Positions 13,692 to 41,381 of a DNA stretch of 64,000 nt are shown one piece after another (position 1 is the first letter of the stretch; each line of letters starts with the position of its first letter). The notes beneath the pieces were generated by a model. It did no database searches, had not been told where the DNA came from, and saw only the letters and a list, made by a program, of their open reading frames with translations. The DNA lies in the NCBI GenBank assembly GCA_025362795.1, contig JANYFE010000061.1, positions 1 to 64,000 of the forward strand, given 5' to 3'. The translations under genes and the position numbers were made by a program. The stretch comes from Rhodobacterales bacterium (lineage in GTDB: Bacteria; Pseudomonadota; Alphaproteobacteria; Rhodobacterales; Rhodobacteraceae).

Positions 13692-13702
13692 GGGGGGACA
13701 GA

Positions 13703-15199: not shown

Positions 15200-18100
15200 T
15201 CAGGTGAACAGGAAGTCCAGCGCGGTCAGTTCCGCAGCACTGGTCAGCCCGGTCATGGTGATGAAGATATCCGCAGCCCCGCTGCCGTCGGTGTCGATCT
15301 GAACCTGACTGCCGACCACCCGCGCTTCGGTATTGCCATGCACCAGACTGAACGCCGCCGCGCCCAGATAGTTGAAGGTGCCGTGCAAGAGCCCGATAAA
15401 CTCCAGCACATCGCCTTCCGCGCCGCCAATGCCCTCGACCCCGTTGAAGTCGGTGATGACGTCGATGCCACTGACGGTGGAGTTGAAGACGAAGTGATCC
15501 GCCCCCGTGCCGCCGGTCAGATTGTCGTTGCCACCCAGTCCGATCAAGCTGTCGTTGCCGTCCATCCCCTTCAGAATGTTGGTGCCCAGGTTGCCCGTCA
15601 GCTTGTTGTCCAACAGGTTGCCGGTGCCGTTGATCGACGAACTGGACAGCAGCGTGAGGTTTTCAACGTTGGCGGCCAGCGTATAGGTGATCGTCGACTG
15701 AACGGTATCGATGCCCTTGTTTAGGTCTTCGGTGATCAGATCCAGCACAGCATCGATGATATAGACGTCGTTGCCGTCACCGCCTTGCAGCACGTCATTG
15801 CCCGAACCGCCGTCCAGCTTGTCCGCGCCGTCCCCGCCATACAGCGTATCGTTCAGCGAGCCGCCCGACAACTGGTTGGCGGCCGAGTTGCCGGTCAGGA
15901 TGTTGGCCAGGCTGTTACCGGTGCCGTCGATCGCATTGGTGCCGGTCAGCGTCAGGTTTTCCACCGCCGTCAGCGCCGAGATCGACTTGGTGATCGACGC
16001 CAACACCGTGTCGACGCCTCCGGTGAGCGATTCGGTAATCATGTCGGTCGCGCTGTCGACGATGTAGGTGTCGTTGCCGTTGCCACCGGTCATCGCGTCA
16101 TTGCCGATGCCGCCATCCAGCGTGTCCGCCCCGTCACCGCCCAACAGCGTGTCGTTGCCATCCAGACCCATCAGCAGGTTGGCCCCGGCATTGCCGTTCA
16201 TCAGGTTGGCCAAGTTGGTGCCGGTGCCGTTGATGTCCAGCAGACCCGTCAGCGTCAGATTCTCGAACTCCGCCGCCAGCGTATAGGTCAGGCTGGCCTG
16301 CACCAGATCCGCCGTGCCGCCCAACGCCTGTTCCACCAGCGTGTCGCCAAGGCTGTCAACGACAAACGTGTCGTTGCCTCCGCCGCCGGTCATGCTGTCA
16401 TCGCCAAGGCCGCCGTTCAGCGTGTCATTGCCCAGACCGCCGTCCAGCGTGTCGTTGCCGTCCAGGGCGATCAGGTTGTTGGCCGACGCGTTGCCGGTCA
16501 TCACGTTGGCCGACAGGTTGCCGGTGCCGGTGATCGCAGTGCCGATCAGCGTCAGGTTTTCCAGCGTGGCACCCAGAATGTAGGTCAGCGTGGAATTCAC
16601 TGTGTCCGTGCCCTCACCCGCAACCTCGATCACCTGATCGGCAATGTTATCGACAAAGTAGGTGTCGTTGCCCGCGCCGCCGGTCATCGAATCCGCTTCG
16701 GTGCCGCCGTTCAGCGTGTCCGCCCCGTCGCCGCCAAACAGCGTGTCATTGGCGGCCCCGCCCGCCAGCATGTTGGCGCCGGCGTTGCCGGTCATGGTGT
16801 TGGCCAGTGTGTTGCCGGTGCTGTTCAGATCGGCCGAGCCGCTTATCACCAGGTTCTCGACAAAGCCGCTCAACAACGTGATCTCGACCGACGTGCGTAC
16901 CGTGTCGATGCCGCCCGTCAGGGTTTCGGTGATCGTGCCGCCCGTGTCATCGACGATATAGGTGTCATTGCCGTCGCCGCCGGTCATCGTATCTACGCCA
17001 AGACCACCGTTCAGCGTGTCATTGCCCGCGCCGCCAAAGAGGGTGTCGTTGCCAAGCCCGCCCGACAGGTTGTTCGCGCCGATGTTGCCGGTGATCACGT
17101 TGGCCACGTCGTTGCCGGTGCCGTTGATGTCGGCGGTGCCGATCATGGTCAGGTTTTCGAACTCGACCGCCAGAGTGTAGTTGACCGTGCTTTGCACCGT
17201 GTCGATGCCGCCAAGGGCCACTTCGACCAGCACGTCGCTTTGGGTGTCGACGATATAGGTGTCGTTGCCCAGCCCGCCGTCCATGCTGTCGGTCCCGGCC
17301 CCGCCGTCCATCGTGTCGTTGCCCGTGCCGGTGCCGCCATACAGCGTATCGGCGCCGCCCATGCCTTGCAGATTGTTGCCAGAGGCGGTTCCGGTGATCG
17401 TGTTGTTCTGGTCGTTGCCGATGCCGGTGATGGCAGAGCTGCTCAGCACCAAATTCTCGACATCGGCGCTCATCGTATAGTTGATCGAGGCGTTGATCGT
17501 GTCAGTGCCCTCGCCTTGCAGTTCCACCACCACATCGCCGGCATTGGCGACGATGTAAGTGTCGTTGCCTCCGCCGCCGACCATGCTGTCGTTGTCGGCC
17601 CCGCCGTCCAGCGTGTCCGCCCCCCCGCCGCCATACAGCGTGTCGTCCAGCGCAGCACCGCTCAGCAGGTTGCCCGACCCGTTTCCGGTGATCACGTTGG
17701 CCAGACCGTTGCCGGTGCCGTTCAACATACCCGCGCCGGTGATGTTCAGGTTTTCAAGGTTGGTGCCCAGCGTATAGGTCACTGTGGCTTCAACGGTGTC
17801 GATGCCGCCCGTTGTGGTTTCGGTGATCTTGTCCAGCACGGCATTGTCCAGCCGGTACAGATCGTTGCCGTCGCCGCCCACCATCGTGTCGTTGCCGGTG
17901 CCGCCGTCCAGCGTGTCGTTGCCGCCGTTGGCAGTCAGCACGTCATTGCCATCCAACCCGGTCAACAGGTTGGCGGCATCGTTGCCGGTGATCGCGTTGT
18001 TCACGGCGTTGCCGGTGCCATTGACGACATCCGTGCCGGTCAGCACAAGGTTTTCAAAGAAGTCGGCCAGCGTGAAGGTCAGGTTGGTCAGCACGGTGTC

Positions 18101-21100: not shown

Positions 21101-23041
21101 GGTCAGCGTGTCGTTCAGCGCGCCACCGTACAAAGCGTTGGCATTGGCGTCGCCGGTCAGCGTGTCATTGAAGGCCGAACCGATGACCGCCTCGACCGAG
21201 CCCAGCACAAAGGTATCGCCGGTCGCGTCGCCGTTGTTGCCGGTGCCGCTGTTCAGCAGGATGGCCACGCCAACGCCAGCCGCGCTGTAGTCCACCGTGT
21301 CAAAGCCCGCGCCGCCGTCGATGCTGTCGGCCCCCGCGCCGCCAACCAAAGTGTCATTCTCGCTGCCGCCGAACAGCGTGTCGTTGCCCGCAGCCCCCGA
21401 CAGGCTGTCGGCCAGCGCCCCGCCCGACAACACGTTGGCAGCGCCGTCGCCGCCCAGCGTGTCGTTGAAGGCAGAGCCGGTCAGGTTCTCGACCGTGGTC
21501 AGAATGTCGCCCGCCGCGTCGCCGCCCAGGCCCGCAGCGCCGCCGATGGTGATGCTGACGCCCGCGCCAGAGGCGGAATAATCCACCGTATCGGTGCCGG
21601 TGCCGCCGTCAATCGTGTCAGCCCCCAGACCGCCCGCCAGCGTGTCGTTGCCGGCGCCGCCGGACAGGCTGTTGGCGTTCAGATCGCCGGTCAGCGTGTC
21701 GTTGAAGGCAGAGCCGACCAGGTTTTCCACGGTGGTCAGAATGTCGCCCGCCGCGTCGCCGCCCAGGCCCGCCGCGCCGTTGACCGTGATGCTGACGCCC
21801 GCGCCAGAGGCGGAATAATCCACGGTATCGGTGCCGGTGCCGCCGTCAATCGTATCAGCCCCCGCGCCGCCCGCCAGCGTGTCATTCAGCGCCCCGCCAT
21901 ACAACGCGTTAGCAGCGCCGTCGCCAGTCAGCGTGTCATTGAAGGCCGAGCCGATGATCGCCTCGACCGAGCCCAGCGTGATGACATCGCCCGCCGCATC
22001 GCCCAAAAGACCGGTGCCCGCCGCCAGAGAAACCGTGACGCCCGCGCCCGATGCGCTGTAGTCCACCGTGTCAAAACCCGCGCCGCCGTCCATGCTGTCA
22101 GCACCGGCCCCGCCGACCAGCGTGTCATTCTCGGTGCCGCCGAACAGACTGTCATTGCCGCCCGCACCCGACAGGCTGTCGGCCAGCGCGCCGCCGAACA
22201 GCACGTTGGCATTGCCGTCGCCCGCCAGCGTGTCGTTGAACGCAGAGCCCGTCACGTTCTCGACCGAGGCCAGCGTGATGATGTCGCCTGCCGCATCGCC
22301 GCCCGATTGCGCGGTGCCGATCGCAAGGTTGATGTTGACCGCCAGAGACGAGGTCGAATATTCCACCGTGTCGATGCCCAAGCCGCCGTCGATGCTGTCG
22401 GCCGCAGCGCCGCCCGTCAGGGTGTCGTTGCCCGATCCGCCAAACAGCGTGTCAAGCCCCGCGCCGCCCTTCAGCCAGTTCGCGTTGCTGTCGCCGGTGA
22501 GTGTGTCATTGAACGTCGACCCGATCACCCCCTCGATCGAGTTCGAGGTCATCGTGTCGCCCGCCGCATCACCGCCGGTGCTGGTGCCGCCAATCGTGAC
22601 ACTGACAGCAGACCCAGAGGCGGTGTAATCCACCCAGTCAAAGCCCGCGCCGCCGTCCAGACTGTCCGCCCCCGCGCCGCCGATCAGCGTGTCATTGCCC
22701 GCGCCGCCAAACAGACTGTCGACACCTGCGCCGCCGCTCAGCAGGTTGTCGTTGCCGTCACCGGTGATGTTGTCTGCCGCCGTGCCGCCCGTGACGTTTT
22801 CGATGAAGAACAGGGTGTCGCCATTCGCGTCGCCCAGCGTTCCGGTGCCGGTCAGCAGATTGACCGTGATCGACGTCGTTGAAGCCGAGTAATCTGCAAG
22901 GTCGATGCCATTGCCGCCATCCAGCCGGTCAGCCCCCGCCAGGCCGATCAGCACGTCGTTGCCATCCGCCCCGTAAAGCGAGTCGATACCCGCACTACCG
23001 GTCAGCGTTTCGTTTGCAGCGGTCCCGTTGATGGTGGTCAT
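15200..23041 (-). CDS. Giant RTX (calcium-binding nonapeptide repeat) protein, secreted
   Basis: A 2,613-residue protein made almost entirely of repeats. From about residue 10 to 1517 there are 17 modules of ~70-100 residues of the form D-x-x-DYS-...-VNL-...-GDAAGD-...-ENLxGSAFNDTLTGD-...-GGxGADxLDGG. From there to ~2520 are 10 modules of the form DTYIVD-...-GIDTV-...-YTLxxxxENLxLxG-...-NGTGN-...-GGxGNDTLDGG. The final ~100 residues (DHFVFNSTVSG, then VITDFN, GDVLEF) resemble the serralysin-like C-terminus used as a type I secretion signal. GGxGxD motifs bind calcium outside the cell. No enzymatic domain is visible, so a surface/adhesin or matrix role is likely. ATG 23041 has GGGAG upstream. 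No type I exporter is encoded nearby. Confidence 0.92.
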   Translation of the reverse strand: MTTINGTAANETLTGSAGIDSLYGADGNDVLIGLAGADRLDGGNGIDLADYSASTTSITVNLLTGTGTLGDANGDTLFFIENVTGGTAADNITGDGNDNLLSGGAGVDSLFGGAGNDTLIGGAGADSLDGGAGFDWVDYTASGSAVSVTIGGTSTGGDAAGDTMTSNSIEGVIGSTFNDTLTGDSNANWLKGGAGLDTLFGGSGNDTLTGGAAADSIDGGLGIDTVEYSTSSLAVNINLAIGTAQSGGDAAGDIITLASVENVTGSAFNDTLAGDGNANVLFGGALADSLSGAGGNDSLFGGTENDTLVGGAGADSMDGGAGFDTVDYSASGAGVTVSLAAGTGLLGDAAGDVITLGSVEAIIGSAFNDTLTGDGAANALYGGALNDTLAGGAGADTIDGGTGTDTVDYSASGAGVSITVNGAAGLGGDAAGDILTTVENLVGSAFNDTLTGDLNANSLSGGAGNDTLAGGLGADTIDGGTGTDTVDYSASGAGVSITIGGAAGLGGDAAGDILTTVENLTGSAFNDTLGGDGAANVLSGGALADSLSGAAGNDTLFGGSENDTLVGGAGADSIDGGAGFDTVDYSAAGVGVAILLNSGTGNNGDATGDTFVLGSVEAVIGSAFNDTLTGDANANALYGGALNDTLTGGAGADTLDGGTGNDQVDYTGSAAAVNITIGGAAGLGGDAAGDLITNVETILGTAFNDTLGGDATANSLFGGALADSLSGAGGNDSLFGGTENDTLVGGAGADSMDGGAGTDAADYSGAAAGVSVNLLTGATAGSDAAGDVLTAIENLIGSGFADTLTGDTGGNALFGGAGADSLLGGDGNDTLTGGAGADTMDGGNGTDFADYSTATAALTFNLTTNTFSGDAAGDVILNIEGVVASAFNDTLVGDGNANVFYGGAGNDSITGGAGADTLDGGAGTGDILDYSGSTSGVTINLGTGSYAGGDATGDVVTGFEIIVGSGQNDSLTGDVGANALFGGLGDDTISGGAGADTLDGGTGGSDTLDYSTATAGVAVNLTNGTGTAGEAAGDVVSGFETVAGSAFNDTLTGDGNANVLLGGALADSLSGAAGNDSLFGGTENDTLIGGAGADSLDGGAGTDTADYSSATAGVSASLLAGTGTAGDATGDVLTAIENLTGSGFADVLAGDNTANVLLGGIGADVLTGNDGNDSLYAGADNDTLVGGVGSDSLDGSTGTDTADYSSSASAVTVNLSTGVNTGGDAGGDTLVGIENLTGSGGGDVLTGDGNANQLTGGLGNDALFGGIGVDSLYGGDGSDALSGGAGDDVLDGGAGIDTLDLANSTVAVTVNLATGSAISSDGTDTVSNFENVKGSAFNDTLTGDGSDNSFVGGAGADSMVGGAGSDTADYAANALAVNIDLTLNVATGGDADGDTFAGIENLIGTAFADTLKGDTGNNVLTGGAGGDVIIGSTGTDTASYATSAAAVSMDLFNGFGVGGDADGDILTNIENLTGSAFDDTLTGDTAANILSGGAGNDKLDGGSTDGALTADTMIGGLGDDTYTVDSALDVITELDGQGIDLVFSTANITLSTGIENLTLNGQFDLEGIGNALDNKITGNSGTGGTIGQRGFNVLQGLAGNDTLIGNGGNDTLDGGTGTDRMVGGTGDDTYVVDTLADVIVEVAGVDVDTVLTNLTFTLADFFENLVLTGTDVVNGTGNAVNNAITGNDAANLLTGLDGNDVLTANGGNDTLDGGTGNDTMVGGDGNDLYRLDNAVLDKITETTTGGIDTVEATVTYTLGTNLENLNITGAGMLNGTGNGLANVITGNGSGNLLSGAALDDTLYGGGGADTLDGGADNDSMVGGGGNDTYIVANAGDVVVELQGEGTDTINASINYTMSADVENLVLSSSAITGIGNDQNNTITGTASGNNLQGMGGADTLYGGTGTGNDTMDGGAGTDSMDGGLGNDTYIVDTQSDVLVEVALGGIDTVQSTVNYTLAVEFENLTMIGTADINGTGNDVANVITGNIGANNLSGGLGNDTLFGGAGNDTLNGGLGVDTMTGGDGNDTYIVDDTGGTITETLTGGIDTVRTSVEITLLSGFVENLVISGSADLNSTGNTLANTMTGNAGANMLAGGAANDTLFGGDGADTLNGGTEADSMTGGAGNDTYFVDNIADQVIEVAGEGTDTVNSTLTYILGATLENLTLIGTAITGTGNLSANVMTGNASANNLIALDGNDTLDGGLGNDTLNGGLGDDSMTGGGGNDTFVVDSLGDTLVEQALGGTADLVQASLTYTLAAEFENLTLTGLLDINGTGTNLANLMNGNAGANLLMGLDGNDTLLGGDGADTLDGGIGNDAMTGGNGNDTYIVDSATDMITESLTGGVDTVLASITKSISALTAVENLTLTGTNAIDGTGNSLANILTGNSAANQLSGGSLNDTLYGGDGADKLDGGSGNDVLQGGDGNDVYIIDAVLDLITEDLNKGIDTVQSTITYTLAANVENLTLLSSSSINGTGNLLDNKLTGNLGTNILKGMDGNDSLIGLGGNDNLTGGTGADHFVFNSTVSGIDVITDFNGVEGIGGAEGDVLEFIGLLHGTFNYLGAAAFSLVHGNTEARVVGSQVQIDTDGSGAADIFITMTGLTSAAELTALDFLFT
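15500..18490 (-). repeat. Tandem type-B modules of the RTX gene (10 copies)
   Basis: Ten repeats of about 300 bp encoding DTYIVD...YTL...ENL...NGTGN...GNDTLDGG modules. They are more diverged from each other at DNA level than the type-A copies, suggesting an older array. Confidence 0.8.
20772..20896 (-). repeat. 125-bp perfect repeat inside the RTX gene, copy 1
   Basis: Identical over 125 bases to 22077-22201. Both encode the GGALADSLSGAGGNDSLFGG / ENDTLVGGAGADSMDGG part of a type-A module. Perfect identity, including third positions, shows recent duplication or gene conversion. Confidence 0.9.
22077..22201 (-). repeat. 125-bp perfect repeat inside the RTX gene, copy 2
   Basis: Partner of 20772-20896, about 1.3 kb away in direct orientation. 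Recombination between the copies would delete in-frame modules and change protein length. Confidence 0.9.
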
Positions 23042-23236
23042 GTCAAAATCTCCCTTCGTGCAAACGCCGGCGGCAGCCAACAGGCACAGTTACATTCCGT
23101 CAGCGTTACGGGTGACTTCGGGCAGAATTTAGACAGGATTGCTGCGCTTAGCGGAGAAATTAAGCCAAATTTGCGGCAGTCCCCGCCGGGCAACGCACAG
23201 CCAGAACCGCGGCAGGTCGTGAAATCTGTCCAGTCC

Positions 23237-29103: not shown

Positions 29104-30117
29104 TCAGCCCATGCCGCCGGACAGGTCCACCGACATCACCAGGATGTTCAGCAGGATATAGATACCGCCCAGAACCCACATCGCATTTCGGTCAAGCCGC
29201 AGGCTATCTGCTTCGCGGTCGTTATACCGCAGGCGCAGCGAAAAGATCGAGATGAAGACAGACACGAAAATCACCCCTACCGCGATCAGGTTGATCTGTT
29301 CTGCCAAGGTCACTGCGGTGGTGGGGGGCAGTGATCCGGTGATGACAAAGGCGTTGGCAGAGGCCGCGAAGATCGAGCCGACGCCCATGCCAAAGCGCGC
29401 GTCAAGGTCATCGGCCTTGATCAGAAAGGCCAGCAGCCCCAGCAGAACCGCCAACGCGGAAATCCAGAATGCCTTGAACAGCGGGCCATAACTGGTGCGG
29501 TCCAGCGACACCGACAGCACAAAGCGCGAATAGATGCCGGCGTCGGCTGCGGCGCTGCGCAGGCCATAGTTGGTGTCATAGGTATGGGCGGTCACGACGG
29601 TCGGTTGCAGCCCGACTTTCCAGCCAGAGACTTTGACAGCCGGGTCAAGGGCAATGCCTTCGTCAATGGTGTAGGTCAGTTGCGCATTGTCGAGTTCGGC
29701 GTCTTCCAGGTCGATGGTGATGACATGGTTGTCCAGCGGAAAGCGGCGCACGTCGAAATCGTGGAAAATCGTGGCCTGAACCCGGACAGTGGCGTAATTG
29801 GTGCCTCCGTCATCCTCGAGCTGGCTTTCAGACCGCGAGGTGATGACGCCATTGGCCAGCTCGAACGTCTGGTCGGGCCGCACTTCGCTGCCATGCCAGC
29901 GAAACCACAGCCACATGTCCACATCAAACGAGCCATTTTGCGGCGAAACATTGCTGAGCCGCAGAATATAGACCCCGGCAGCAACGTCAGTATGCGAGGC
30001 CACGATGGCAGTGGCGCCCGCAACGACGCCGGTGGTGGCCGCAGTCTCGGCGGTGGCGGGAAAGGACGCGCCCAGTAGGGACAGCACAAGCAGCAGGGAC
30101 CGGATCATGGTGCGCAT
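29104..30117 (-). CDS. Prokaryotic pentameric ligand-gated ion channel homologue
   Basis: A 337-residue protein. A signal peptide (MRTMIRSLLLVLSLLGASF) precedes an extracellular beta-rich domain, then four hydrophobic segments near the C-terminus: FKAFWISALAVLLGLLAFLI, FAASANAFVITGSLPPTTAV, INLIAVGVIFVSVFISIF and MWVLGGIYILLNILVMS. The motifs FDVDMWLWFRW and HDFDVRRFPLDNHVI match the ligand-binding domain of the GLIC/ELIC/Cys-loop superfamily. The Cys-loop cysteines are absent, as in other bacterial members. It would form an inner-membrane channel opened by a ligand or protons in the periplasm. ATG 30117 was chosen because it starts the signal peptide, though no ribosome binding site is obvious. 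The frame opens to 30198. Confidence 0.72.
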   Translation of the reverse strand: MRTMIRSLLLVLSLLGASFPATAETAATTGVVAGATAIVASHTDVAAGVYILRLSNVSPQNGSFDVDMWLWFRWHGSEVRPDQTFELANGVITSRSESQLEDDGGTNYATVRVQATIFHDFDVRRFPLDNHVITIDLEDAELDNAQLTYTIDEGIALDPAVKVSGWKVGLQPTVVTAHTYDTNYGLRSAAADAGIYSRFVLSVSLDRTSYGPLFKAFWISALAVLLGLLAFLIKADDLDARFGMGVGSIFAASANAFVITGSLPPTTAVTLAEQINLIAVGVIFVSVFISIFSLRLRYNDREADSLRLDRNAMWVLGGIYILLNILVMSVDLSGGMG

Positions 30118-30238
30118 GGCGGAGGGCTTTCTGGCAGGGGCGTTGCTGCCCGGGTTTGGGTCACGCCGCGACGCGAAGGCACCGGGGACATCCCCCATAG
30201 CCTAGCGACGCAGCGGGCTGCAGATGCCCCAACCGGGC

Positions 30239-31852: not shown

Positions 31853-33358
31853 TTAGCTTTGCAGCCCGAATGCCACTTTAAGGGCACCTTGTGTCGTCTT
31901 GCCGAAATCGCCATCCAGCGGGCCTTCGTAGAAATTGTGCGACTTCAGGATTTTCTGCAGGGCGGTCCGGGTCTTGATGCTGAACATCAAAGGATCGGAG
32001 GTCAGCTGTTTCAGCACGGCATCGCTGCCAGACCGCAAGGACTGATACAGGTATTTTGCGGAATCTTCGGGGCCTTTGCCCTCGACCTTGCCGTCGTCGA
32101 TCAGGGCGGCATAGTTGAACATCGCTTCGGGGTGGCGCAGGTCAGCGGCCTGACGGAACAGATCCAGGCCCTTCGCATGATCGGGGGTCAGGCCGAGGCC
32201 ACCCTGATAATACAGAAAGCCGAGGTCATTCAGTGCGTCGGGAAAATTCTGCGCGGCAGAGGCCTGGTATAGCTCCAGCGCACGCACCGGGTCGGCGGGA
32301 ACGCCGGTGCCCTGTTCGTATAGCTTTGCCAGTTCGAACTGGGCATCCGCGGCCCCGGCAGCGGCGGCTTTGGTCAAAAATTCCACCGCCTCTTGCGGGT
32401 TGTAGCGGGCCTCTTTCGGGTTCAGGCGGATATAGGCCAGCCCCAGCATCGATCGGGTGTCGCCACTGTCGGCGAGGGCGCGGAGCTGTTGTTCCTGTTC
32501 AGGTTTGATATCGGCCCAGGCGACCCGGGGGTCAGCCTCCGCCGCGACGTCGATCGAACCGCCGGTCGAGCCTGCCAGATAAAACGGCGTCCCGGACAAA
32601 GAGCCATAGGTATAGGGTTCCTGCAGGTTCTGGGTCTGAGCCAGAACCTGATCGCGCACCTGCCGGAACATCAGGCTGATTTCCAGATTGGGTTCGGCAA
32701 AGGCCTGCATCAGCGCGGTGGCGTAGGGACTGTGGCCGTTGGCCCCGTCTAGTGCCACCTGACCTCCCTTGGCGGCAAAGGCGACCAGTGTGCCAAGGTC
32801 GGGGTTGACCGGCGCCAGACCCTGCACACCGGCAGAACGGGTGCTGTTGTCGGTGCTGGTGGCTTCGGCCTTGGTCGAGGTGTCGACCAGATCGCCAAAC
32901 GGGTTGTTGCGGCAGCTGTCCAGAATGACGACGCGCATCTTGCGCGCCGATTCCACGGTTTTCAGCACGTCGTCCAGTGAAATGGCGACACGCACCACGT
33001 CCTTGTTCGACTTCACATCGGCATCGACCGGGATCAGATAGTTGACACCCTGCACCTCGACCCCGTGACCCGCGTAATAGACCAGCGCCAGATCGGCGGT
33101 TTCGGCCTGAAACGAAAACGCCTGCATGATGTCCAGCAGTTCGGCCTGAGACTTGTCGGTGGCCAAAGTGACCTTGAAGCCGACCGACTGCAACTTGGCC
33201 GCCACCGCATCGGCGTCGTTGATGGTGTTTTTCAGCTGCACGACATGTTGGTATGCCCCCATACCAATGACCAGCGCCACCCGTTCGGCCAAAGCCTGAA
33301 ACGGGGTGGCCAACAGGATCAGAACGAAAACCGGGGCGAGAAAGGCTTTGCGAAACAT
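31853..33358 (-). CDS. Exported caspase-like protein with Sel1 repeats and peptidoglycan-binding domain
   Basis: A 501-residue protein. Signal peptide (AFLAPVFVLILLATPFQALA), then a peptidase C14 caspase domain (residues ~25-265) with the catalytic His in LVYYAGHGVE and Cys in VVILDSCRNNPFG. Sel1-type TPR repeats follow (~300-440, e.g. AQFELAKLYEQGTGVPADP). A C-terminal peptidoglycan-binding-1-like segment ends the protein (LQKILKSHNFYEGPLDGDFG). It is therefore a periplasmic cysteine-peptidase homologue tethered to the wall. Two ATGs are adjacent; AGGAG spacing favours 33358. It heads away from the two tandem caspase genes at 34660-37725. Confidence 0.88.
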   Translation of the reverse strand: MFRKAFLAPVFVLILLATPFQALAERVALVIGMGAYQHVVQLKNTINDADAVAAKLQSVGFKVTLATDKSQAELLDIMQAFSFQAETADLALVYYAGHGVEVQGVNYLIPVDADVKSNKDVVRVAISLDDVLKTVESARKMRVVILDSCRNNPFGDLVDTSTKAEATSTDNSTRSAGVQGLAPVNPDLGTLVAFAAKGGQVALDGANGHSPYATALMQAFAEPNLEISLMFRQVRDQVLAQTQNLQEPYTYGSLSGTPFYLAGSTGGSIDVAAEADPRVAWADIKPEQEQQLRALADSGDTRSMLGLAYIRLNPKEARYNPQEAVEFLTKAAAAGAADAQFELAKLYEQGTGVPADPVRALELYQASAAQNFPDALNDLGFLYYQGGLGLTPDHAKGLDLFRQAADLRHPEAMFNYAALIDDGKVEGKGPEDSAKYLYQSLRSGSDAVLKQLTSDPLMFSIKTRTALQKILKSHNFYEGPLDGDFGKTTQGALKVAFGLQS

Positions 33359-33396
33359 CATGGCTCCTGCGCGGGATCTTGCCCGTGCCAGTTGGT

Positions 33397-34455
33397 CTAG
33401 TTGGTGACTTTGAATTCGATCCTGCGGTTGCGGGACATGTTTTCAGCGCTGTCGTTGGCGACCAGCGGCACCGCCTCGCCATAGCCATGCGCGGTCAAAC
33501 GGTCGGCGGGAATGCCCTTGGCCACCAGGTAGTCGATCACAGAGCGGGCACGCTTTTCCGACAGGGCCTGATTGGTGGCGTCGGACCCGGCATCATCGGT
33601 GTGGCCGCCGATTTCCAGCTTCATCTCCGGGCAGCGGCTGACGATGTCATAGAGGTTGTCCAGAATGGCCGAGCCCGCCACGTCCAGCTTGGCGGACCCA
33701 GAGCGAAAGTTGATATTGCCGGCATTTGACAGAATTTCGAACCGGCCCTTGCAGGCTTCGGCGTCGAAATTGCCGGTCGTCTCCAGCGCGGTCGTGGTCG
33801 GTTCGACCGCAGGTGCGGTGACTGGAGCTGCGCCCGAAGCGCCGACCCGCTGGAACAGCCAGTCAAAGGTGATCGACCCGGTCGGCACGATTTTAACCTT
33901 GGCCGCCTCCTGCAGCTTGGTGATCCCCGCGTCCAGATTGAAATCGCTGGTGGCTACCGGGATTGCGGCCACCGACGACACCGCGACCATATCGTCAGAG
34001 ATCAGGGTCACGGACACATCGGCCGTGCGCGCAATCTTCACGCCGTGCAGGTCAAGCGTATAGGGCATGTTGATCGTCATGCGGCGCTTGGTCGGCAGGT
34101 CGGCAATCAGGGCGGGGTCGATATGGGCGGTGATGATCGCTTCGGGGAATTTGAAGGTTTCAAAGAACAGAAACCGCATACGAACGTTGCGCAGATCGAT
34201 CTTGGTATCCACCGAATCCAGCGCCACGCGGACCTCGGCGTCGCCCGCTTCTGAAATGGTGCCAGAGAAGGTGGCAAAGGACGATCCCTCGACCTTGGTT
34301 TCGTTCTTGACCGATTGGAATCCAAGGGTCGAGCCGTCGGCGGTCAGCACCCAGCCACCCGCAAAAGGATTGCTTTGGGCCTGTCCGCTGCCGGGGATGG
34401 CAAAGGTCAGAACAAGGAATAGCGCCGTCATCCAAGCCGTTGCCACAGAACGCAT
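33397..34455 (-). CDS. YceI-like plus OmpA domain fusion, exported
   Basis: A 352-residue protein. Signal peptide (TALFLVLTFAIPGSGQAQ), then a YceI-like lipocalin-fold domain at ~30-205 (GWVLTADGSTLGFQSVKNET, FSGTISEAGDAEVRVALDSV). The C-terminal OmpA/MotB peptidoglycan-binding domain spans ~245-350, with LEIGGHTDDAGSD and ENMSRNRRIEFKV. YceI domains bind isoprenoid-like ligands; OmpA domains bind diaminopimelate in the wall. GGAG precedes the ATG. It lies 38 bp upstream of the caspase-like gene on the same strand, so the two are probably co-transcribed. Confidence 0.85.
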   Translation of the reverse strand: MRSVATAWMTALFLVLTFAIPGSGQAQSNPFAGGWVLTADGSTLGFQSVKNETKVEGSSFATFSGTISEAGDAEVRVALDSVDTKIDLRNVRMRFLFFETFKFPEAIITAHIDPALIADLPTKRRMTINMPYTLDLHGVKIARTADVSVTLISDDMVAVSSVAAIPVATSDFNLDAGITKLQEAAKVKIVPTGSITFDWLFQRVGASGAAPVTAPAVEPTTTALETTGNFDAEACKGRFEILSNAGNINFRSGSAKLDVAGSAILDNLYDIVSRCPEMKLEIGGHTDDAGSDATNQALSEKRARSVIDYLVAKGIPADRLTAHGYGEAVPLVANDSAENMSRNRRIEFKVTN

Positions 34456-34659: not shown

Positions 34660-36132
34660 ATGGCGCGCGTTATCATCTGGGCCGTTGCCCTGTGGCTGGG
34701 CCTGAATGCAACCGGGTTTGCGGAAAACCGGGTGGCGCTGGTGATTGGCAATGGCGGCTACCTGTCGGTGAACGGGCTGACCAACCCCGCGAATGACGCA
34801 AAGCTGATGGCGGTGGCACTGGGCGGGCTGGGGTTCAAGGTGACGCTGGTGGTCGACGGCGACATTTTGCAGATGTCGGCGGCGGTGACGGCGTTTGGTT
34901 CTGCCTTGCGTGATGCTGGGCCAGAGGCGACGGGGCTGTTTTATTACGCCGGCCACGGGGTTCAGAGTTTCGGGCACAACTATCTGCTGCCGGTCGATGC
35001 CAAGCTAAGCAACGCCGCCGATCTGGGGCTGGTGGCGGTCGATGCGGAATCCGTGTTGCGCCAGATGTTTTCGGCGCACAACCGCACCAACATCGTGATT
35101 CTGGACGCCTGCCGCAACAACCCGTTCGTGAACGTGCGCGATCTGGGGGACAACGGGTTGGCCGAAATGTCGGCCCCGACCGGCACATTCCTGTCCTATG
35201 CCACGGCGCCCGGCGCGGTCGCGCTGGACGGCGCGGATGGCGACAGCCCGTTCACCAAGGCGCTGGCGGCAAAGATGGCGACGCCGGGGCTGGCCATTGA
35301 ACAGGTGTTCAAAGAGGTGCGGGTGGCGGTGCTGGACGCAACGCACGGCAAGCAGACGCCGTGGGATACCAGTTCGCTGACCACCGATTTCGCCTTTGCG
35401 CCCGCGGCTGACACCAGCGCGGGCGACGAGGCGGCGCTGTGGGCGGCGATCAACGCGTCACATGACCCGGTTCAGATCATGCTGTTTTTGCGCGCCTATC
35501 CGGCCTCTGCCCATATGACAGAGGCGCGGGCGCTGCTGGCGGCGGCGATGCAGAAAGAGGTGGCACCAGCCGCCCCGCCGGCCAAGGTCGCTGCGGCGGC
35601 GGGCCCGGCGGAGGTGGCGGCTTTTGGCGCGGCAGAGGCGTCCGGGACTTTGGCGGGCTATCAGGATTTTCTGGCGCAGTATCCCGACAGCCCCTTTGTC
35701 GAAGCGGTGAGTGCCGAGATCGCAGCACTGAATGCGACGGCCGCGCGGGCGGCGGCGCCTCCGGTCGTCGCGCCTGATCCGGCGGCGGCCCGGCCTGAAG
35801 GCGCGATTGACCCGGTGATGGCGGCACAGATCGAGGCGCAAAGCATCCGTTTTGCCGCGCCCCTGACCGCAGGCACGCCCGATATCGCAGGCAAGGCCAT
35901 TCAGGATCTGATCAAGGCCAGCCCGCTCTTCCCGCCATTCGAAGGCGTGCCGGACGAGGTCTGGAAGGGCAAGAAGTGCAGCGATTGCCACAAATGGACG
36001 CAACCCGCGCTGTGTGATCAGGGCAAGTTCTATGTCAAGGACGATACGTTTGCCGCGCTGACCAACCAGCATCCGCTGGGCGGTGCGTTCCGGTTGACCC
36101 TGCGGACTTGGGCGACCCAGGGATGCAAGTAG
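34660..36132 (+). CDS. Exported caspase-like protein with C-terminal CxxCH domain, copy 1
   Basis: A 490-residue protein starting at ATG 34660 (AAGGTGA upstream). A signal peptide (MARVIIWAVALWLGLNATGF) and a caspase domain with His in LFYYAGHGVQSF and Cys in IVILDACRNNPF come first. Two helical repeats of the FLRAYPxSxxxxEA type follow, then a proline/alanine linker. The C-terminal domain has CSDCH at residues 440-444, another Cys in PALCDQGKFYV, a conserved HPLGG and a final Cys. CxxCH in an exported protein is the haem c attachment signature, though disulfide or metal binding is possible. It is paired in tandem with a close paralogue at 36271-37725. Confidence 0.87.
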   Translation: MARVIIWAVALWLGLNATGFAENRVALVIGNGGYLSVNGLTNPANDAKLMAVALGGLGFKVTLVVDGDILQMSAAVTAFGSALRDAGPEATGLFYYAGHGVQSFGHNYLLPVDAKLSNAADLGLVAVDAESVLRQMFSAHNRTNIVILDACRNNPFVNVRDLGDNGLAEMSAPTGTFLSYATAPGAVALDGADGDSPFTKALAAKMATPGLAIEQVFKEVRVAVLDATHGKQTPWDTSSLTTDFAFAPAADTSAGDEAALWAAINASHDPVQIMLFLRAYPASAHMTEARALLAAAMQKEVAPAAPPAKVAAAAGPAEVAAFGAAEASGTLAGYQDFLAQYPDSPFVEAVSAEIAALNATAARAAAPPVVAPDPAAARPEGAIDPVMAAQIEAQSIRFAAPLTAGTPDIAGKAIQDLIKASPLFPPFEGVPDEVWKGKKCSDCHKWTQPALCDQGKFYVKDDTFAALTNQHPLGGAFRLTLRTWATQGCK

Positions 36133-36270
36133 CGGCGCGTCGCCCCAGAGCATTTGTAATTCGGCCACGAGCTTGCCGCGTTCGCCTGCCATGCCATTGC
36201 CTTGCCCCGCCGAATCCATCAGGCTTTCCGCGCGGTTTGCTGGTCTGGCGACTGGGATAAGGGGAGCGGC

Positions 36271-37725
36271 GTGGCGCGTCTGATTTTGTGGGCAATGACC
36301 CTTTGGCTGGGGCTGACTGGCGCTGTCTTCGCCGAACCGCGCATCGCGCTGATCGTCGGCAACGGCGCGTATCAGGGCGTCAACGGCCTGCCCAACCCAC
36401 CCAATGATGCCAAGCTGATGGCCGCGACACTGGCGCAGCTTGGCTTCAAAGTGACCCTCTTGGCCGATGGCAGTTTGGAGCAGATGTCGGCGGCGGTGTC
36501 GGCCTTTGGGTTGGCGCTGCGCGAGGCGGGGCCAGAGACGACAGGGCTGTTCTATTACGCGGGCCACGGCGTCCAAAGTTTTGGGATCAATTATCTGCTG
36601 CCGGTCGATGCCAAGCTGAGCAACGCCGCGGATCTGGGGCTGGTGGCGATTGACGCACAGTCTGTGCTGCGCCAGATGTTTTCGGCGCACAATCGCACCA
36701 ACATTGTGATCCTGGACGCCTGCCGCAACAATCCGTTCACCGAAGTACGCGATCTGGGCGACAATGGCTTGGCAGAGATGGCGGCCCCGACCGGCACGTT
36801 CCTGTCCTATGCCACTGCCCCGCGGGCCGTGGCGCTGGACGGCGCCGATGGCAACAGCCCGTTCACCAAGGCGCTGGCAGCAAAGATCACCACCCCGGGT
36901 TTGCCGATCGAGCAGGCCTTCAAAGAGGTGCGGGTCGCCGTCTTGCAAGCGACGGGTGGCAAGCAGACACCTTGGGATACGTCGTCGCTGACCGCGGATT
37001 TTGCCTTTGCCCCGGCAGTCGACAGCGGGGCGGGCGATGAAGCGGCGCTGTGGGCCTCGGTCGTCGCCTCGCGCGATCCGGTGCAGGTCATGCTGTTCCT
37101 GCGTGCCTATCCGAAATCGACCCATGAGTCCGAGGCACGGGCCTTGCTGGCCGAGGTGATGCAGAAAGAAGTGACCAAGTCGGCAGAGACAACCAAGGTC
37201 GCCACAGTCGTTGATCCTGCCGAGGTTGCGGCCTTCGAGGCGGCGCAGGCGGCCGGCACATTGCTGGCATTTCAGGACTTTGTTGCTGCCTATCCGACCA
37301 GCAGTTTCAACGAAGCGGTGAACGCAGAAATCGCCTTGCTGGGCACAGCCCCCCGCGCCGCCGCCACCCCGGCGATTGCTCCGCAAGACGGCGGTGCCAT
37401 TGATGCGGCACTAAAAGGTCAGATCGAGGCTGCGGATATTGTGTTTGCCGGCCCGCTGGCCATCGGCACCTCCGGCATGGTCGGCAAGTCAATCGAAGAG
37501 CTGATCCAGACCAAACCGCTGTACAGCCCGATCGAGGGTCTGCCGAAAGAGGCGTGGGAAGGCCAGCCGTGTGCCGCCTGCCACAAATGGACCGAAGCCG
37601 CGCTGTGCGATCAGGGCAAGTTCTATGTGAAAGAGGCCGCTCCTTTGGTCGCCCTGACCCAGCATCCGTTGGGCGGTGAGTTCAAGCTGACGCTGAAAAC
37701 CTGGGCGGCGAAAGGCTGCAGGTAG
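36271..37725 (+). CDS. Exported caspase-like protein with C-terminal CxxCH domain, copy 2
   Basis: A 484-residue tandem paralogue of the preceding gene with the same layout. Signal peptide (WAMTLWLGLTGAVFAE), caspase dyad (FYYAGHGVQSF; IVILDACRNNPF), FLRAYPKSTHESEA repeats, and a C-terminal CAACH at residues 434-438 with the same downstream Cys, HPLGG and terminal Cys. Start is GTG at 36271 with GGGGAG just upstream; it aligns with the ATG of copy 1. Identity is high in the caspase domain and lower in the linker, which suggests duplication followed by selection on both ends. An intrinsic terminator follows. Confidence 0.87.
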   Translation: MARLILWAMTLWLGLTGAVFAEPRIALIVGNGAYQGVNGLPNPPNDAKLMAATLAQLGFKVTLLADGSLEQMSAAVSAFGLALREAGPETTGLFYYAGHGVQSFGINYLLPVDAKLSNAADLGLVAIDAQSVLRQMFSAHNRTNIVILDACRNNPFTEVRDLGDNGLAEMAAPTGTFLSYATAPRAVALDGADGNSPFTKALAAKITTPGLPIEQAFKEVRVAVLQATGGKQTPWDTSSLTADFAFAPAVDSGAGDEAALWASVVASRDPVQVMLFLRAYPKSTHESEARALLAEVMQKEVTKSAETTKVATVVDPAEVAAFEAAQAAGTLLAFQDFVAAYPTSSFNEAVNAEIALLGTAPRAAATPAIAPQDGGAIDAALKGQIEAADIVFAGPLAIGTSGMVGKSIEELIQTKPLYSPIEGLPKEAWEGQPCAACHKWTEAALCDQGKFYVKEAAPLVALTQHPLGGEFKLTLKTWAAKGCR

Positions 37726-37903: not shown

Positions 37904-39379
37904 CTATTTTTTTGTCGACACAAAGAAATAGACCCACTCGCCTTTGAATTCCGGATCTTTGGCGCGGGCTTCGGCGACGCGGGTTTTCAGCCAGTCCAGA
38001 TAGGGCGCGGCGGGCTCGGTCATCGGGCGCAGGCCGTCATACAGGGGGGCGGAGGCGGCGAAGGCGGCTGCGATTTCCTGGCCATAGGGCGGGCCGATGG
38101 TGATGTGCAGGAACGGCTCGCCCGCATCCGCCGCGCCGACATGCATCGCGGTTTTTGCGGGTCGCAGTTTCAAGGGCACGGTGGCGTTGGGCACCAGATG
38201 GATCACCTGACCATCGGCATCGAAGAAATCCACGTAAAGATAGGCGTCGTAGTCCGGGGCGGCGAGGTCGAGCACCATCGTCTGGCCGGTGGTATAGGTA
38301 TAGGCCTTGGCCTGCGCATCGGCCCCGATCAGGCGGGGGTTGGTGTTCTGGTCCTGCGATTGTGGCAGGCCGACATCGGCGATACCCGACAAGGCACCGC
38401 ATTGCGGGCGGGGCAGGATCAGCATCGCATCTGCCACCTTGATCCCGGTGCCAACCTGGTCTTGCAAGGCCTTCAGGATCGGCGCGCGCAGGGCCTCATC
38501 CGGGACATGGCCGCGCAGTTCAAGACTGCCGGTGGCCGGGTTGAACTCGGCTTGCAGGCGGGAACAGGGGACCGAGGTCAGCACCGAAGACAGCGCGTCA
38601 TGCACGTCGTCGGATTGGGCGGCGATGTCGCCTGGCTGCATGAAGGACTGGATCGCCTTCAGGGTTTGTGGATCGATCTGAGTGTCCTGGCCCGACCATG
38701 CGAGTGCCGCGACCATGTGATCGCCGGTGGCAGGGGCGGCGGCGACGGGCTGCGCATTGGGTTGGGCCTGTTCGATTGTGTCGCCAATGGTGGATTGCAC
38801 GGCAGCGGTAGAACCGGTCGGGTCCAGGGCTTTGGTGGCGTTAGGGCGCGCGATGGGTTGGATTGCCTTGGGCGTGGCGCTGACCGCAGGCAAGGTTTCG
38901 GCAGGGGCGCTGGCGGATTTGACCACCTCCGCCGCAACGGAGACAGGGGCAATGGGTTCGGCAGGGGCCGCAACAGCCTTGACCGGCTTGGGTGCCGCGG
39001 TTTCAAGCAGCTGTTCGGCCGCGGGAACTTGCGGTTTTTCAGTCTGGGCGGGCGGGGCGGTTGTGGCGATTTTGGTTTGCGGCATCGCCACCGCTTTGGC
39101 CTGGCTTTGCGGCACCTGGCCTTCGGGCACCCGCGCACCTTTGGCCGAAGCGGCAGCGGCGGCGGTTTGCTGGGGGGCCTGTTCGGTGGCCTGAGACTGG
39201 GCAACCTGCTCTGTCTCGATCCTGAGTTGCGACTTGGGTTGCGGCTGATCCACCACCGGATCGGCTTGCAGCATGACCGCCAGCAACGCCGCGGCGCTGA
39301 CGTGGGCGGCGAGCGATGCCAGCAGCCCAACGCCCCATGTCAGGCCGGCACCGGTGTCGGAGGTGTCCAGCGCCGTCAT
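37904..39379 (-). CDS. TonB-like inner-membrane protein with C-terminal DUF4384 domain
   Basis: A 491-residue protein. A TonB-like N-terminal helix (GVGLLASLAAHVSAAALLAV) precedes a long Pro/Ala/Gln-rich periplasmic linker (~45-230). The C-terminal domain of ~160 residues, with YLYVDFFDADGQVIHLVPN and GPPYGQEIAAAFAASAPLYD, matches DUF4384, a domain known beside caspase-like and serine-kinase proteins. It overlaps the ExbD gene by 4 nt (ATGA). With ExbB and two ExbD proteins it should form a proton-driven envelope complex in which the linker spans the periplasm. The DUF4384 end replaces the normal TonB C-terminus that binds TonB boxes. Confidence 0.82.
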   Translation of the reverse strand: MTALDTSDTGAGLTWGVGLLASLAAHVSAAALLAVMLQADPVVDQPQPKSQLRIETEQVAQSQATEQAPQQTAAAAASAKGARVPEGQVPQSQAKAVAMPQTKIATTAPPAQTEKPQVPAAEQLLETAAPKPVKAVAAPAEPIAPVSVAAEVVKSASAPAETLPAVSATPKAIQPIARPNATKALDPTGSTAAVQSTIGDTIEQAQPNAQPVAAAPATGDHMVAALAWSGQDTQIDPQTLKAIQSFMQPGDIAAQSDDVHDALSSVLTSVPCSRLQAEFNPATGSLELRGHVPDEALRAPILKALQDQVGTGIKVADAMLILPRPQCGALSGIADVGLPQSQDQNTNPRLIGADAQAKAYTYTTGQTMVLDLAAPDYDAYLYVDFFDADGQVIHLVPNATVPLKLRPAKTAMHVGAADAGEPFLHITIGPPYGQEIAAAFAASAPLYDGLRPMTEPAAPYLDWLKTRVAEARAKDPEFKGEWVYFFVSTKK

Positions 39380-39780
39380 GGCACCTCTGGTGTGACGACC
39401 AGCGCGACATCCTTGGCCCCCAGATCCTCGAATTCGGTGATGAGGTTCAGGACGATGCGCAGTTCGGTGGTCTTGTCGGCGTTGATGCGGATCAGGGTTT
39501 GCGGGTTTTTGGCGATGCGGGTGGTGACGGCCGTGTCAAGGGCGGCATGGCTGATGGGTGCACCATCCAGGGCGAGGCCGCCGTCGGGGGCGACCGACAG
39601 GGTGATGCCCCCGGCGGGCAGGTCGGTGCCGGTGACGCCCAAGGGCGGGATGACGGCGAAGGGGGCGGTGGCGTCGAGACGGCCGATCAGCATGAAGAAA
39701 ATCAAAAGGAAGAAGGTCACGTCAATCAGCGCCACCACAGTCTCGCGTTCGGCCATTCTGTGCGGGCGGCGCAGTTTCAT
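39376..39780 (-). CDS. exbD: ExbD/TolR-family protein, copy 1
   Basis: A 134-residue protein with one N-terminal membrane helix carrying the conserved Asp in VALIDVTFFLLIFFML, which carries protons in ExbD/TolR. A small periplasmic domain follows (LIRINADKTTELRIVLNLI). It overlaps the TonB-like gene by 4 nt, so the two products are translationally coupled. It probably pairs with the second ExbD in the ExbB pore, as TolR/ExbD dimers do. Confidence 0.88.
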   Translation of the reverse strand: MKLRRPHRMAERETVVALIDVTFFLLIFFMLIGRLDATAPFAVIPPLGVTGTDLPAGGITLSVAPDGGLALDGAPISHAALDTAVTTRIAKNPQTLIRINADKTTELRIVLNLITEFEDLGAKDVALVVTPEVP

Positions 39781-39859
39781 TTGGCGGCCTCGTCAGCGGC
39801 CAAATCTTTTGGAAAAGATTTGCAAATTCCTTCAAAGGAATCTGGGCGTGGGGCTGCCG

Positions 39860-40303
39860 TCATTTGGCGGCCCCGAGGCGGATGACCTTGACGCGGACCG
39901 CTCCGGCCTTGGTGACGGTGTCCATCACGGTGATCAAGGCTTGCAGTTGTGCGCCGCCCGAGGGGAACAGCACCACAGGGGTCAGCGGGTCGGTGGCAAG
40001 GCGGGCCCGCAGGAGGGCGATCAGGGCGTCATTGGCCAAGGGCTGGCCGCGCACCGAGGCTGCGCCATCCGCACCGATGCGGATCAGCAGGGTGGCGGGG
40101 CTGCCGGGTTTGGTGGAGGGGCTGGGGACGGGAGTGTCATCGGGGGCCTCGTCCGACTTTTGCAGCGCGGGGACCATGTCGAGGTTCAGGTAGCTGGAGG
40201 TCACCATGAAAAAGAACAGCAGGATCATCATCACGTCGATCATCGACACGACCGAGATCAGCGTGTGGCGGCGGGCCGGGCGTCTGAGGATCACGCCGCT
40301 CAT
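39860..40303 (-). CDS. exbD: ExbD/TolR-family protein, copy 2
   Basis: A 147-residue ExbD-type protein with the proton-binding Asp in SVVSMIDVMMILLFFFMV. A Pro/Ser-rich stretch and a periplasmic domain (LLIRIGADGAASVRGQPLA) follow. ATG 40303 has GGAG 7 nt upstream; a TTG at 40309 is possible but less likely. It begins 2 nt after the ExbB stop. It differs from the other ExbD in linker and surface, so the complex may be heteromeric. Confidence 0.88.
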   Translation of the reverse strand: MSGVILRRPARRHTLISVVSMIDVMMILLFFFMVTSSYLNLDMVPALQKSDEAPDDTPVPSPSTKPGSPATLLIRIGADGAASVRGQPLANDALIALLRARLATDPLTPVVLFPSGGAQLQALITVMDTVTKAGAVRVKVIRLGAAK

Positions 40304-40305
40304 GC

Positions 40306-40932
40306 TCAACTCCGGTTGGCGGTGGCTTCGATGGCCAGCAAACGACCGATGCTGCTTTCGATGCGCAGCGCCGCGGTTTCGACCCGGCCGGTCAACAGGC
40401 TGGAGGCGACAGCGGCGGGGATCGCCACCAAGAGGCCGCCCGCGGTGGTCAGGAGGGCGAGCCAGATGCCACCGGCGAGGACCGAGGCATTGGCTGACCC
40501 CTGGGCCTGGGCCAGATCCTGAAAGCTCTGGATCATGCCCAGCACGGTGCCGAGCAGGCCCAGCAGCGGCGAGATCATCGAGATCAGGTCCAGCAGGCGC
40601 AGCCAGGCTGACATATGGGACACTTCATCATTGCCGCGGCGGGCCAGTTCGCCCTCCAGCACCGCGCCCGACATGCCGCCTTGCAGACCCTGCATTGCCG
40701 CCAGCAACACCCGGTCGGCGGGGCTGCGGCTTGGGATGCTGGCCATCGCGGCCTCGCGGTCGCCGCGTGCCCAGCTGTCAATCGCTGCGTCCCGCGCCCG
40801 GACGCCGCCGGTAACGGGCCACAGCCGGATGATCTTGACCACGATCAGCGTCAGCGACAAAGCGGAGAGCGCAATCAGGATGGACATGACCGGACCGCCC
40901 GCGACCAGCATGGCCCTAAGGTGCGTGCCCAT
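40306..40932 (-). CDS. exbB: ExbB/TolQ/MotA-family proton channel protein
   Basis: A 208-residue membrane protein with three hydrophobic helices: MSILIALSALSLTLIVVKI, then after a cytoplasmic loop DLISMISPLLGLLGTVLGMI and GIWLALLTTAGGLLVAIPAA. The Gly/Thr-rich motif SPLLGLLGTVLGMIQSF is the ExbB/TolQ hallmark. GGAGG lies 4 nt before the ATG at 40932, which overlaps the upstream stop (ATGA). It forms the stator pore around the ExbD helices. Confidence 0.9.
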   Translation of the reverse strand: MGTHLRAMLVAGGPVMSILIALSALSLTLIVVKIIRLWPVTGGVRARDAAIDSWARGDREAAMASIPSRSPADRVLLAAMQGLQGGMSGAVLEGELARRGNDEVSHMSAWLRLLDLISMISPLLGLLGTVLGMIQSFQDLAQAQGSANASVLAGGIWLALLTTAGGLLVAIPAAVASSLLTGRVETAALRIESSIGRLLAIEATANRS

Positions 40933-41381
40933 CATTCCTCCAAGGGTGCAGAGGTGCGGCTTTTCAGGTCCAGCATCGGATAGCAGTCGGTGTTCGCCTC
41001 GTTCTGCGGTTTGCACACCGGCACGTCATGCAGCAGCACTTCCGAGATGTTGGCGCAACTGATCTGCGGGATCTCGAACAGTTTGAGCGTGGTGCGGGCA
41101 ACGGGCAGCGGCGACGCGTCGATCGACAGCAGGCGGTCGATCACGCCATCCTTGTTGAAGATGGCGAGCGACATTTCGAACCCTTCGAAACTTTTGCCGG
41201 TGGCGTTCTGGAACAGGAAAAAGGCGCGACAGCCGCCGCCGTCGATTTCTTCGAACTTGTTGATCTCGATCGTCAGCTTGCCCGCAGGCGGCGTCGTCTG
41301 GGCCAGACCCTGCTGGCCGAGCAGTGCCAGAGCCATACCTGCCAGCGGCATCCCCAGCCGCTTTAGCGCCGCGTTACCCAT
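40932..41381 (-). CDS. Small exported protein of unknown function heading the ExbB/ExbD operon
   Basis: A 149-residue protein with a signal peptide ending near GLAQ. A mature domain with conserved-looking cysteines follows (GGGCRAFFLFQNATG, EIPQISCANISEV, DVPVCKPQNEANTDCYPM), probably two disulfides. The fold looks like a small beta-sandwich. I do not recognise the family. It is the first gene of the ExbB-ExbD-ExbD-TonB-like operon and is translationally coupled to exbB, so it is likely a periplasmic partner of that complex. Confidence 0.75.
   Translation of the reverse strand: MGNAALKRLGMPLAGMALALLGQQGLAQTTPPAGKLTIEINKFEEIDGGGCRAFFLFQNATGKSFEGFEMSLAIFNKDGVIDRLLSIDASPLPVARTTLKLFEIPQISCANISEVLLHDVPVCKPQNEANTDCYPMLDLKSRTSAPLEE

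What the first reader, a model, noticed from the sequence alone, without database searches (positions are those of the whole stretch)
34660..37725. Tandem exported caspase-like proteins fused to a C-terminal CxxCH domain
Both paralogues keep the His/Cys dyad of peptidase C14 and end in a domain of about 50 residues. That domain has CxxCH (CSDCH at 440-444; CAACH at 434-438), a fixed third Cys in ALCDQGKFYV, an HPLGG with a possible distal His ligand, and a terminal Cys. The proteins carry signal peptides, so a haem c could be attached in the periplasm. A haem- or redox-gated caspase homologue would be new to me. The linkers differ more than the two ends, which fits selection on both.
Basis: partly seen in the sequence, partly recalled or inferred. 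Interest (0 to 1): 0.62.

Follow-up and report, generated by a model that had tools for sequence, protein, structure and literature searches.

The report
Exported caspase with putative haem-c tail
Two neighbouring genes of a Rhodobacterales bacterium encode exported caspase-like proteins that end in an unnamed small domain with the signature for covalent haem attachment; that domain almost always comes with one partner gene, a lipid-binding YceI-OmpA protein, whereas the caspase part and the neighbouring type VI secretion cluster are optional.

Summary
Two tandem exported paralogues (34660-36132 and 36271-37725, +) have a Peptidase_C14 domain (Foldseek: MALT1 paracaspase), a helical-repeat linker and a C-terminal domain of about 95 residues that matches nothing in Pfam, NCBIfam or the PDB. 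In 134 aligned full-length relatives CxxCH and the third Cys are invariant, and the HP histidine and last Cys are kept in 133. Mature proteins have exactly one Cys (catalytic) plus four in the tail (70 of 72). The domain occurs in about 10% of family genomes, Mesorhizobium, Stappiaceae and a few Gammaproteobacteria.

New here: the tail's partner is not the caspase. Of 198 family genomes the same 20 carry the tail and a YceI-OmpA protein, side by side (one surplus tail copy lacks it). Among 112 other loci YceI-OmpA is adjacent in all 85 with enough upstream DNA. Caspase-less secreted tails and catalytically dead caspases keep the tail and usually the partner. Caspase forms mostly lie near type VI secretion genes. 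In two genera the pair adjoins ccmF and ccmI.

A haem-c tail is likely (about 0.7) but unproven. A haem-gated protease is possible, not shown. One claim fails: between A and B the tail (56% identity) is no better conserved than the linker (63%).

The parts
34660..36132 (+). Paralogue A: exported caspase - helical linker - CxxCH tail (490 aa)
   Evidence: ORF; Pfam; AF2 model pLDDT 85.7
34660..34722 (+). Signal peptide of A (residues 1-21, ..GFA/EN)
   Evidence: sequence; hydrophobic helix 2-20 in the model
34729..35391 (+). Caspase domain of A, catalytic His99 (34954-34956) and Cys151 (35110-35112)
   Evidence: PF00656 E 1.3e-32; MALT1 paracaspase E 3.5e-16 by Foldseek; both residues invariant in A4
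35428..35754 (+). Linker with two TPR-like helical pairs (residues 257-301 and 316-365)
   Evidence: model; weak YfiO match
35845..36129 (+). C-terminal domain of A: CxxCH 35977-35991, C452 36013-36015, H471 36070-36072, C489 36124-36126
   Evidence: conservation; no Pfam or NCBIfam match; AF2 pLDDT 89.9
36271..37725 (+). Paralogue B, same layout (484 aa); CxxCH at 37570-37584
33397..34455 (-). Partner: exported YceI lipocalin domain fused to an OmpA peptidoglycan-binding domain
   Evidence: PF04264 and PF00691; linkage
31853..33361 (-). Third exported caspase, with Sel1 repeats and a weak C-terminal peptidoglycan-binding match, no CxxCH tail
37904..39379 (-). DUF4384 protein, conserved convergent neighbour
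39376..41016 (-). ExbD (39376-39780), ExbD (39860-40309), ExbB (40306-41016)
   Evidence: Pfam; same order in L195 and L197
41720..64000 (+). Type VI secretion cluster (TssA, TssB, TssC, Hcp, TagJ/ImpE, TssF, ClpV-type ATPase, FHA protein and others), running off the window

Best explanation
The C-terminal domain is a small periplasmic mono-haem c-type domain: Cys440 and Cys443 bind the haem, His444 is the proximal ligand, His471 of the HP motif is the likely distal ligand, and Cys452-Cys489 is probably a disulphide. Its partner is the YceI-OmpA protein encoded next door: a lipocalin-like domain expected to hold an isoprenoid or quinone, tethered to peptidoglycan. The two work as one envelope unit, most likely exchanging electrons between the haem and the lipid or quinone held by YceI, or sensing its redox state. 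In most members a paracaspase-like protease and a helical-repeat linker are fused in front, usually in or near a type VI secretion cluster, where docking or the haem state may position or switch proteolysis of an envelope protein. Shown here: anatomy, conservation, export signals, the gene pair, caspase-independence of the tail, T6SS linkage. Inferred: haem binding (about 0.7), physical docking to YceI-OmpA (about 0.65), electron exchange (about 0.4), switching of the protease (about 0.25).
For: CxxCH, third Cys, HP His and last Cys kept in 133-134 of 134; mature proteins have one catalytic Cys plus exactly four tail Cys in 70 of 72 caspase forms, and only the four in 12 of 15 without a recognised caspase. 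Two Cytochrom_C_asm proteins in the window's genome, one of CcmF and one of CcmC length; CcmF in 26/26 tail genomes. In L201 and L203 the partner gene is followed 30-odd bases on by an extra ccmF, then ccmI; L203 also has a multihaem c gene. The same 20 of 198 genomes carry tail and full-length YceI-OmpA; adjacent in 85/85 loci with sufficient upstream DNA, 84 within 455 bases. Tail without caspase or with dead caspase. YceI lipocalins hold ubiquinone-8 and pair with haem cytochrome b561 (PMC9113575). T6SS: 17/20 tail genomes against 28/178 others, Fisher p 5e-10, not corrected for kinship.
Against: No fold match to any cytochrome c (best Foldseek E 6.5; no VIA-align match at Z 2 or more) and no cytochrome Pfam match above chance; a few members score weakly against zinc-finger models. 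CcmF is common in this family, so its presence discriminates little. The two ccmF-linked loci may be one ancestral event. A disulphide or metal site would show similar conservation. One extra tail copy (G092 C27, L205) has no YceI-OmpA beside it, and B shares A's partner. No experiment.
Confidence: 0.58

Rival explanations
1. The tail is a haem-free cysteine-rich module held by disulphides (or a zinc site) that docks to the YceI-OmpA protein or the cell wall; CxxCH is coincidental.
For: Four invariant Cys allow two disulphides or a metal site; no cytochrome fold match; weak zinc-finger matches in some members.
Against: It does not by itself explain an invariant His directly after CxxC and an invariant HP His. 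The model puts a short helix at CxxC and no beta hairpin, unlike a zinc ribbon. An accessible CxxCH exported in a Ccm-positive cell usually receives haem (established knowledge). ccmF/ccmI adjacency.
Confidence: 0.27
2. One reading: the haem or redox state of the tail gates the paracaspase, and this is the main function.
For: Caspase plus tail in one chain in most members; dyad intact in 124 of 134 aligned full-length sequences; dyad invariant in A4.
Against: Many tails have no caspase or a dead one and usually still sit with YceI-OmpA; a linker of variable length separates the two domains.
Confidence: 0.2
3. [quoted passage not shown]
For: Genomic linkage to T6SS genes, same synteny in Parasedimentitalea.
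Against: Three tail-bearing genomes of the family sample have no TssC and two more in the second set; several carry both but far apart; caspase-less pairs are mostly unlinked.
Confidence: 0.2
4. It is a T6SS effector or toxin delivered to other cells.
For: Location beside T6SS genes only.
Against: Sec-type signal peptides, no VgrG, PAAR or Hcp fusion, near-obligate pairing with a peptidoglycan-anchored YceI-OmpA protein, existence in genomes without T6SS.
Confidence: 0.04

Closest known systems
Paracaspases and prokaryotic caspase homologues (Peptidase C14, orthocaspases; MALT1)
   Same: Caspase fold with intact His-Cys dyad; best structural match MALT1 at 28% identity
   Different: Exported, with helical repeats and a conserved C-terminal CxxCH domain; the two surveys read (PMC3501461, PMC6426788) do not mention cytochromes in their main text
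BcnA/LcoA: YceI lipocalin with cytochrome b561 (PMC9113575)
   Same: A YceI domain coupled by gene order to a (putative) haem protein in the Gram-negative envelope
   Different: Here YceI is fused to OmpA and the candidate haem protein is a soluble periplasmic c-type domain, not a membrane b561
Small mono-haem c-type cytochromes
   Same: CxxCH, candidate distal His, export, Ccm present
   Different: No detectable sequence or fold relation to a known cytochrome c family
T6SS accessory genes (ExbB/ExbD/DUF4384 cassette, TagF, kinase/phosphatase pair)
   Same: Conserved neighbours in the T6SS clusters of Rhodobacterales and Mesorhizobium
   Different: Not restricted to T6SS clusters or T6SS-bearing genomes

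Membership tests
Peptidase C14 / paracaspase-like | Match to family profile above curated cut-off | tested here: met
   113.8 and 125 bits against 21.4
Peptidase C14 / paracaspase-like | Catalytic His-Cys dyad | tested here: met
   His99, Cys151 in A; both present in 124 of 134 aligned full-length sequences, gaps and frameshifted records included in the rest
Peptidase C14 / paracaspase-like | Caspase fold | tested here: met
   Foldseek to MALT1, E 3.5e-16
Peptidase C14 / paracaspase-like | Proteolytic activity and P1 preference | not testable with these tools
   needs enzymology
c-type cytochrome (mono-haem) | CxxCH in an exported segment | tested here: met
   134/134; N-terminal hydrophobic segment over threshold in 75 of 87, most others just under it
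c-type cytochrome (mono-haem) | Conserved candidate for the second axial ligand | tested here: met
   His471 133/134
c-type cytochrome (mono-haem) | Cytochrome c maturation system in the host | tested here: met
c-type cytochrome (mono-haem) | Recognisable cytochrome c family or fold | tested here: not met
c-type cytochrome (mono-haem) | Covalent haem | not testable with these tools
   needs protein
YceI lipocalin (partner gene) | YceI domain above cut-off | tested here: met
   42.5 bits against 23.7
YceI lipocalin with cytochrome b561 (BcnA/LcoA type) | Adjacent cytochrome b561 | not tested
   no specific search for b561 was made; none was noted among annotated neighbours
Core T6SS component | Present only with T6SS genes | tested here: not met
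   G101, G154, G158 and G284, G310 have the tail without TssC

The most novel reading that the evidence does not exclude
A periplasmic redox unit in which a covalent haem-c domain and a quinone- or lipid-carrying YceI-OmpA protein together control a fused paracaspase: a bacterial protease switched by a cytochrome-c-like domain, in alphaproteobacteria, with type VI secretion or envelope repair as the output.
Probability: 0.2. Interest if true: 0.85.

Novelty: new variant of a known kind. Interest (0 to 1): 0.6.

Why it matters
Prokaryotic caspase homologues mostly lack a known trigger or partner. Here is a large family (over 100 loci) with one near-obligate partner gene, a defined genomic setting and an unnamed, strictly conserved domain that makes a sharp, cheap prediction (covalent haem). 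If haem is bound, it is a case of a caspase relative and a c-type haem domain in one bacterial envelope protein. The pairing with a YceI lipocalin would extend the known YceI-cytochrome theme from membrane b561 to a soluble c-type partner.

Tried and rejected
Pfam, NCBIfam and PDB sequence searches with the tail gave only chance-level or uninformative matches. L076, L093, L110, L142 and L166 were treated as chance matches; L079, L115 and the two viral-contig hits gave no open frame with the motif. My first automatic split into intact and pseudo-caspases was too strict; the alignment shows intact dyads in L104, L105, L138, L149, L159 and L183, and puts a Cys at the catalytic column in L178. L123, L187 and L184 look like frameshifted or truncated records. 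PADLOC matches are to a generic caspase model and to MotB-like OmpA domains only. Paper searches found no description of this architecture.

Full report
WHAT IS THERE. Two tandem genes on the + strand, 34660-36132 (A, ATG) and 36271-37725 (B, GTG; its frame opens at 36202), encode proteins with a signal peptide, a Peptidase_C14 domain well above Pfam's cut-off, a helical-repeat linker, and a C-terminal domain with CxxCH. The numbering in the finding (440-444 and 434-438) is right. AlphaFold2 with 38 relatives gives a confident caspase domain, two TPR-like helical pairs and a separate all-alpha tail; Foldseek puts the caspase domain next to human MALT1, the paracaspase (E 3.5e-16, 28% identity). 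The tail matches nothing in Pfam or NCBIfam, only chance-level sequences in the PDB, and no solved fold although its own model is confident (pLDDT 89.9).

IS IT MORE THAN CHANCE. Yes. HMM searches that do not require CxxCH found the tail in 20 of 198 genomes of the window's family, 42 of 292 in a denser sample (two of these are weak) and in seven genomes of one genus elsewhere in the class (Mesorhizobium by the named hits), and essentially nowhere else in the class and phylum samples. Over 134 aligned full-length proteins Cys440, Cys443, His444 and Cys452 are invariant, and His471 and Cys489 are present in 133. Mature caspase forms have exactly one other Cys, the catalytic one, in 70 of 72; 12 of 15 proteins without a recognised caspase have only the four tail cysteines. 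Four obligatory cysteines and two obligatory histidines fit two thioether bonds to haem, a proximal and a distal ligand, and one disulphide. They would also fit a haem-free disulphide or metal module.

A CORRECTION. The finding says the linkers differ more than the two ends. Between A and B identity is 84% in the caspase domain, 63% in the linker and 56% in the tail. The key residues of the tail are fixed; the rest is free to vary.

THE PARTNER. The gene upstream, 33397-34455 on the - strand, encodes an exported YceI lipocalin domain fused to an OmpA peptidoglycan-binding domain. Among 112 tail loci from the pattern scan, YceI-OmpA was found in 85, in 84 of them within 455 bases; the 27 without it all lack enough upstream DNA to hold it. 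In the family sample the same 20 genomes that carry the tail carry a full-length YceI-OmpA protein, and no other genome does (the only extra hit, G054, covers the OmpA part alone). Exceptions: a surplus tail gene in G092 (C27) has none beside it, and B shares A's. Some caspase-less tail genes overlap the end of the YceI-OmpA gene by 4 bases (L113, L136, L173).

THE CASPASE IS OPTIONAL. Short secreted proteins with the tail and no caspase occur in several lineages (L022, L024, L098, L100, L103, L113, L136, L163, L165, L173, L175, and others), and L182 has a cytoplasmic N-terminus, a membrane helix and then the tail. Dead caspases with an intact tail occur in L102 (both catalytic residues lost), L162 (both lost) and L185 (Cys lost). 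Twelve of the fourteen records first classed as caspase-less still have YceI-OmpA (a few of those records are frameshifted or truncated). On the tail tree at least 8 changes between caspase and no caspase are needed, though starred branches force only 2. So the conserved unit is tail plus YceI-OmpA, not tail plus protease.

TYPE VI SECRETION. The window's genes lie between a third caspase and a DUF4384 - ExbD - ExbD - ExbB cassette, followed by TssA, TssB, TssC, Hcp and so on. The same order is annotated on a Parasedimentitalea marina plasmid, and related arrangements occur in Ruegeria, Rhodobacteraceae SC52 and Mesorhizobium ciceri. In the family sample 17 of 20 tail genomes have TssC against 28 of 178 others (Fisher p 5e-10, not corrected for kinship), and in 12 of the 17 the two lie within about 11 kb. 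Caspase forms are often linked, caspase-less forms rarely (1 of 10 in the second set, by the coordinates). But five tail genomes have no TssC at all, so the unit is not a core T6SS part.

HAEM. CcmF is present in all 26 tail genomes tested, which is a necessary condition but common in the family. More telling: in G197 and G068 the YceI-OmpA gene is followed about 30 bases on by a second ccmF and then ccmI, and G068 has a multihaem cytochrome c7/DmsE-like gene nearby. These two may stem from one event. YceI lipocalins are known to hold ubiquinone-8 and to be coupled by gene order or fusion to a haem protein, cytochrome b561, against lipid peroxidation (PMC9113575). A c-type haem domain beside a YceI-OmpA protein would be the soluble counterpart.

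MECHANISM, WITH LIKELIHOODS. (1) The tail carries one covalent haem with bis-His ligation: about 0.7. (2) It docks to YceI-OmpA, which is held at peptidoglycan: about 0.65. (3) The pair exchanges electrons with, or senses, a quinone or lipid in YceI: about 0.4. (4) In the fused forms this positions or switches the paracaspase, perhaps on a T6SS or envelope substrate: about 0.25. Steps 1 to 4 are inferences; the anatomy, conservation, gene pair, optional caspase and T6SS linkage are shown.

WHAT IS NEW. No paper found describes the tail, its pairing or the fusion; the two surveys of prokaryotic caspase homologues that were read do not mention cytochromes in their main text, and the one in which YceI and type VI secretion were also looked for mentions neither. 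The search covers open-licence papers only. By parts it is a new variant of known kinds (paracaspase, YceI, OmpA) with an unnamed domain; it is not filed as a known cytochrome c family because the fold and family tests were not met.

Noticed in passing
L203 (G068) 6006-15940; L201 (G197) 3294-11387: The pair sits beside an extra ccmF and ccmI, and a 615-620 aa protein (TPR-like in L203; weak outer-membrane beta-barrel matches in L201); L203 also has a DmsE/MtrA-like multihaem cytochrome. Possibly an electron-transfer cluster.
   Followed up: partly
L102, L162, L185: Caspase domains that lost catalytic residues while the CxxCH tail stayed intact.
   Followed up: partly
L022 (G154), L182: The tail attached to other N-termini: a secreted domain with no Pfam match, and a cytoplasmic region followed by a membrane helix.
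   Followed up: no
window 15200-23080 (-): ORF of 2626 aa starting with repeats like NETLTGSAGIDSLYGADGNDVLIGLAGA, resembling an RTX-type repeat protein.
   Followed up: no
window 29104-30198 (-): Membrane protein with a weak Neur_chan_LBD match (E 2.5e-4), perhaps a ligand-gated ion channel relative.
   Followed up: no
L004 (G000 contig C43), 246-1469 and 1417-3117: Another caspase, overlapping the end of a gene that looks like a metallo-beta-lactamase-fold protein, with a possible membrane helix after the caspase domain.
   Followed up: no
window 33397-34455 and alignment A5: The YceI-OmpA partner has two invariant cysteines (C235, C275) in or before its OmpA domain.
   Followed up: no
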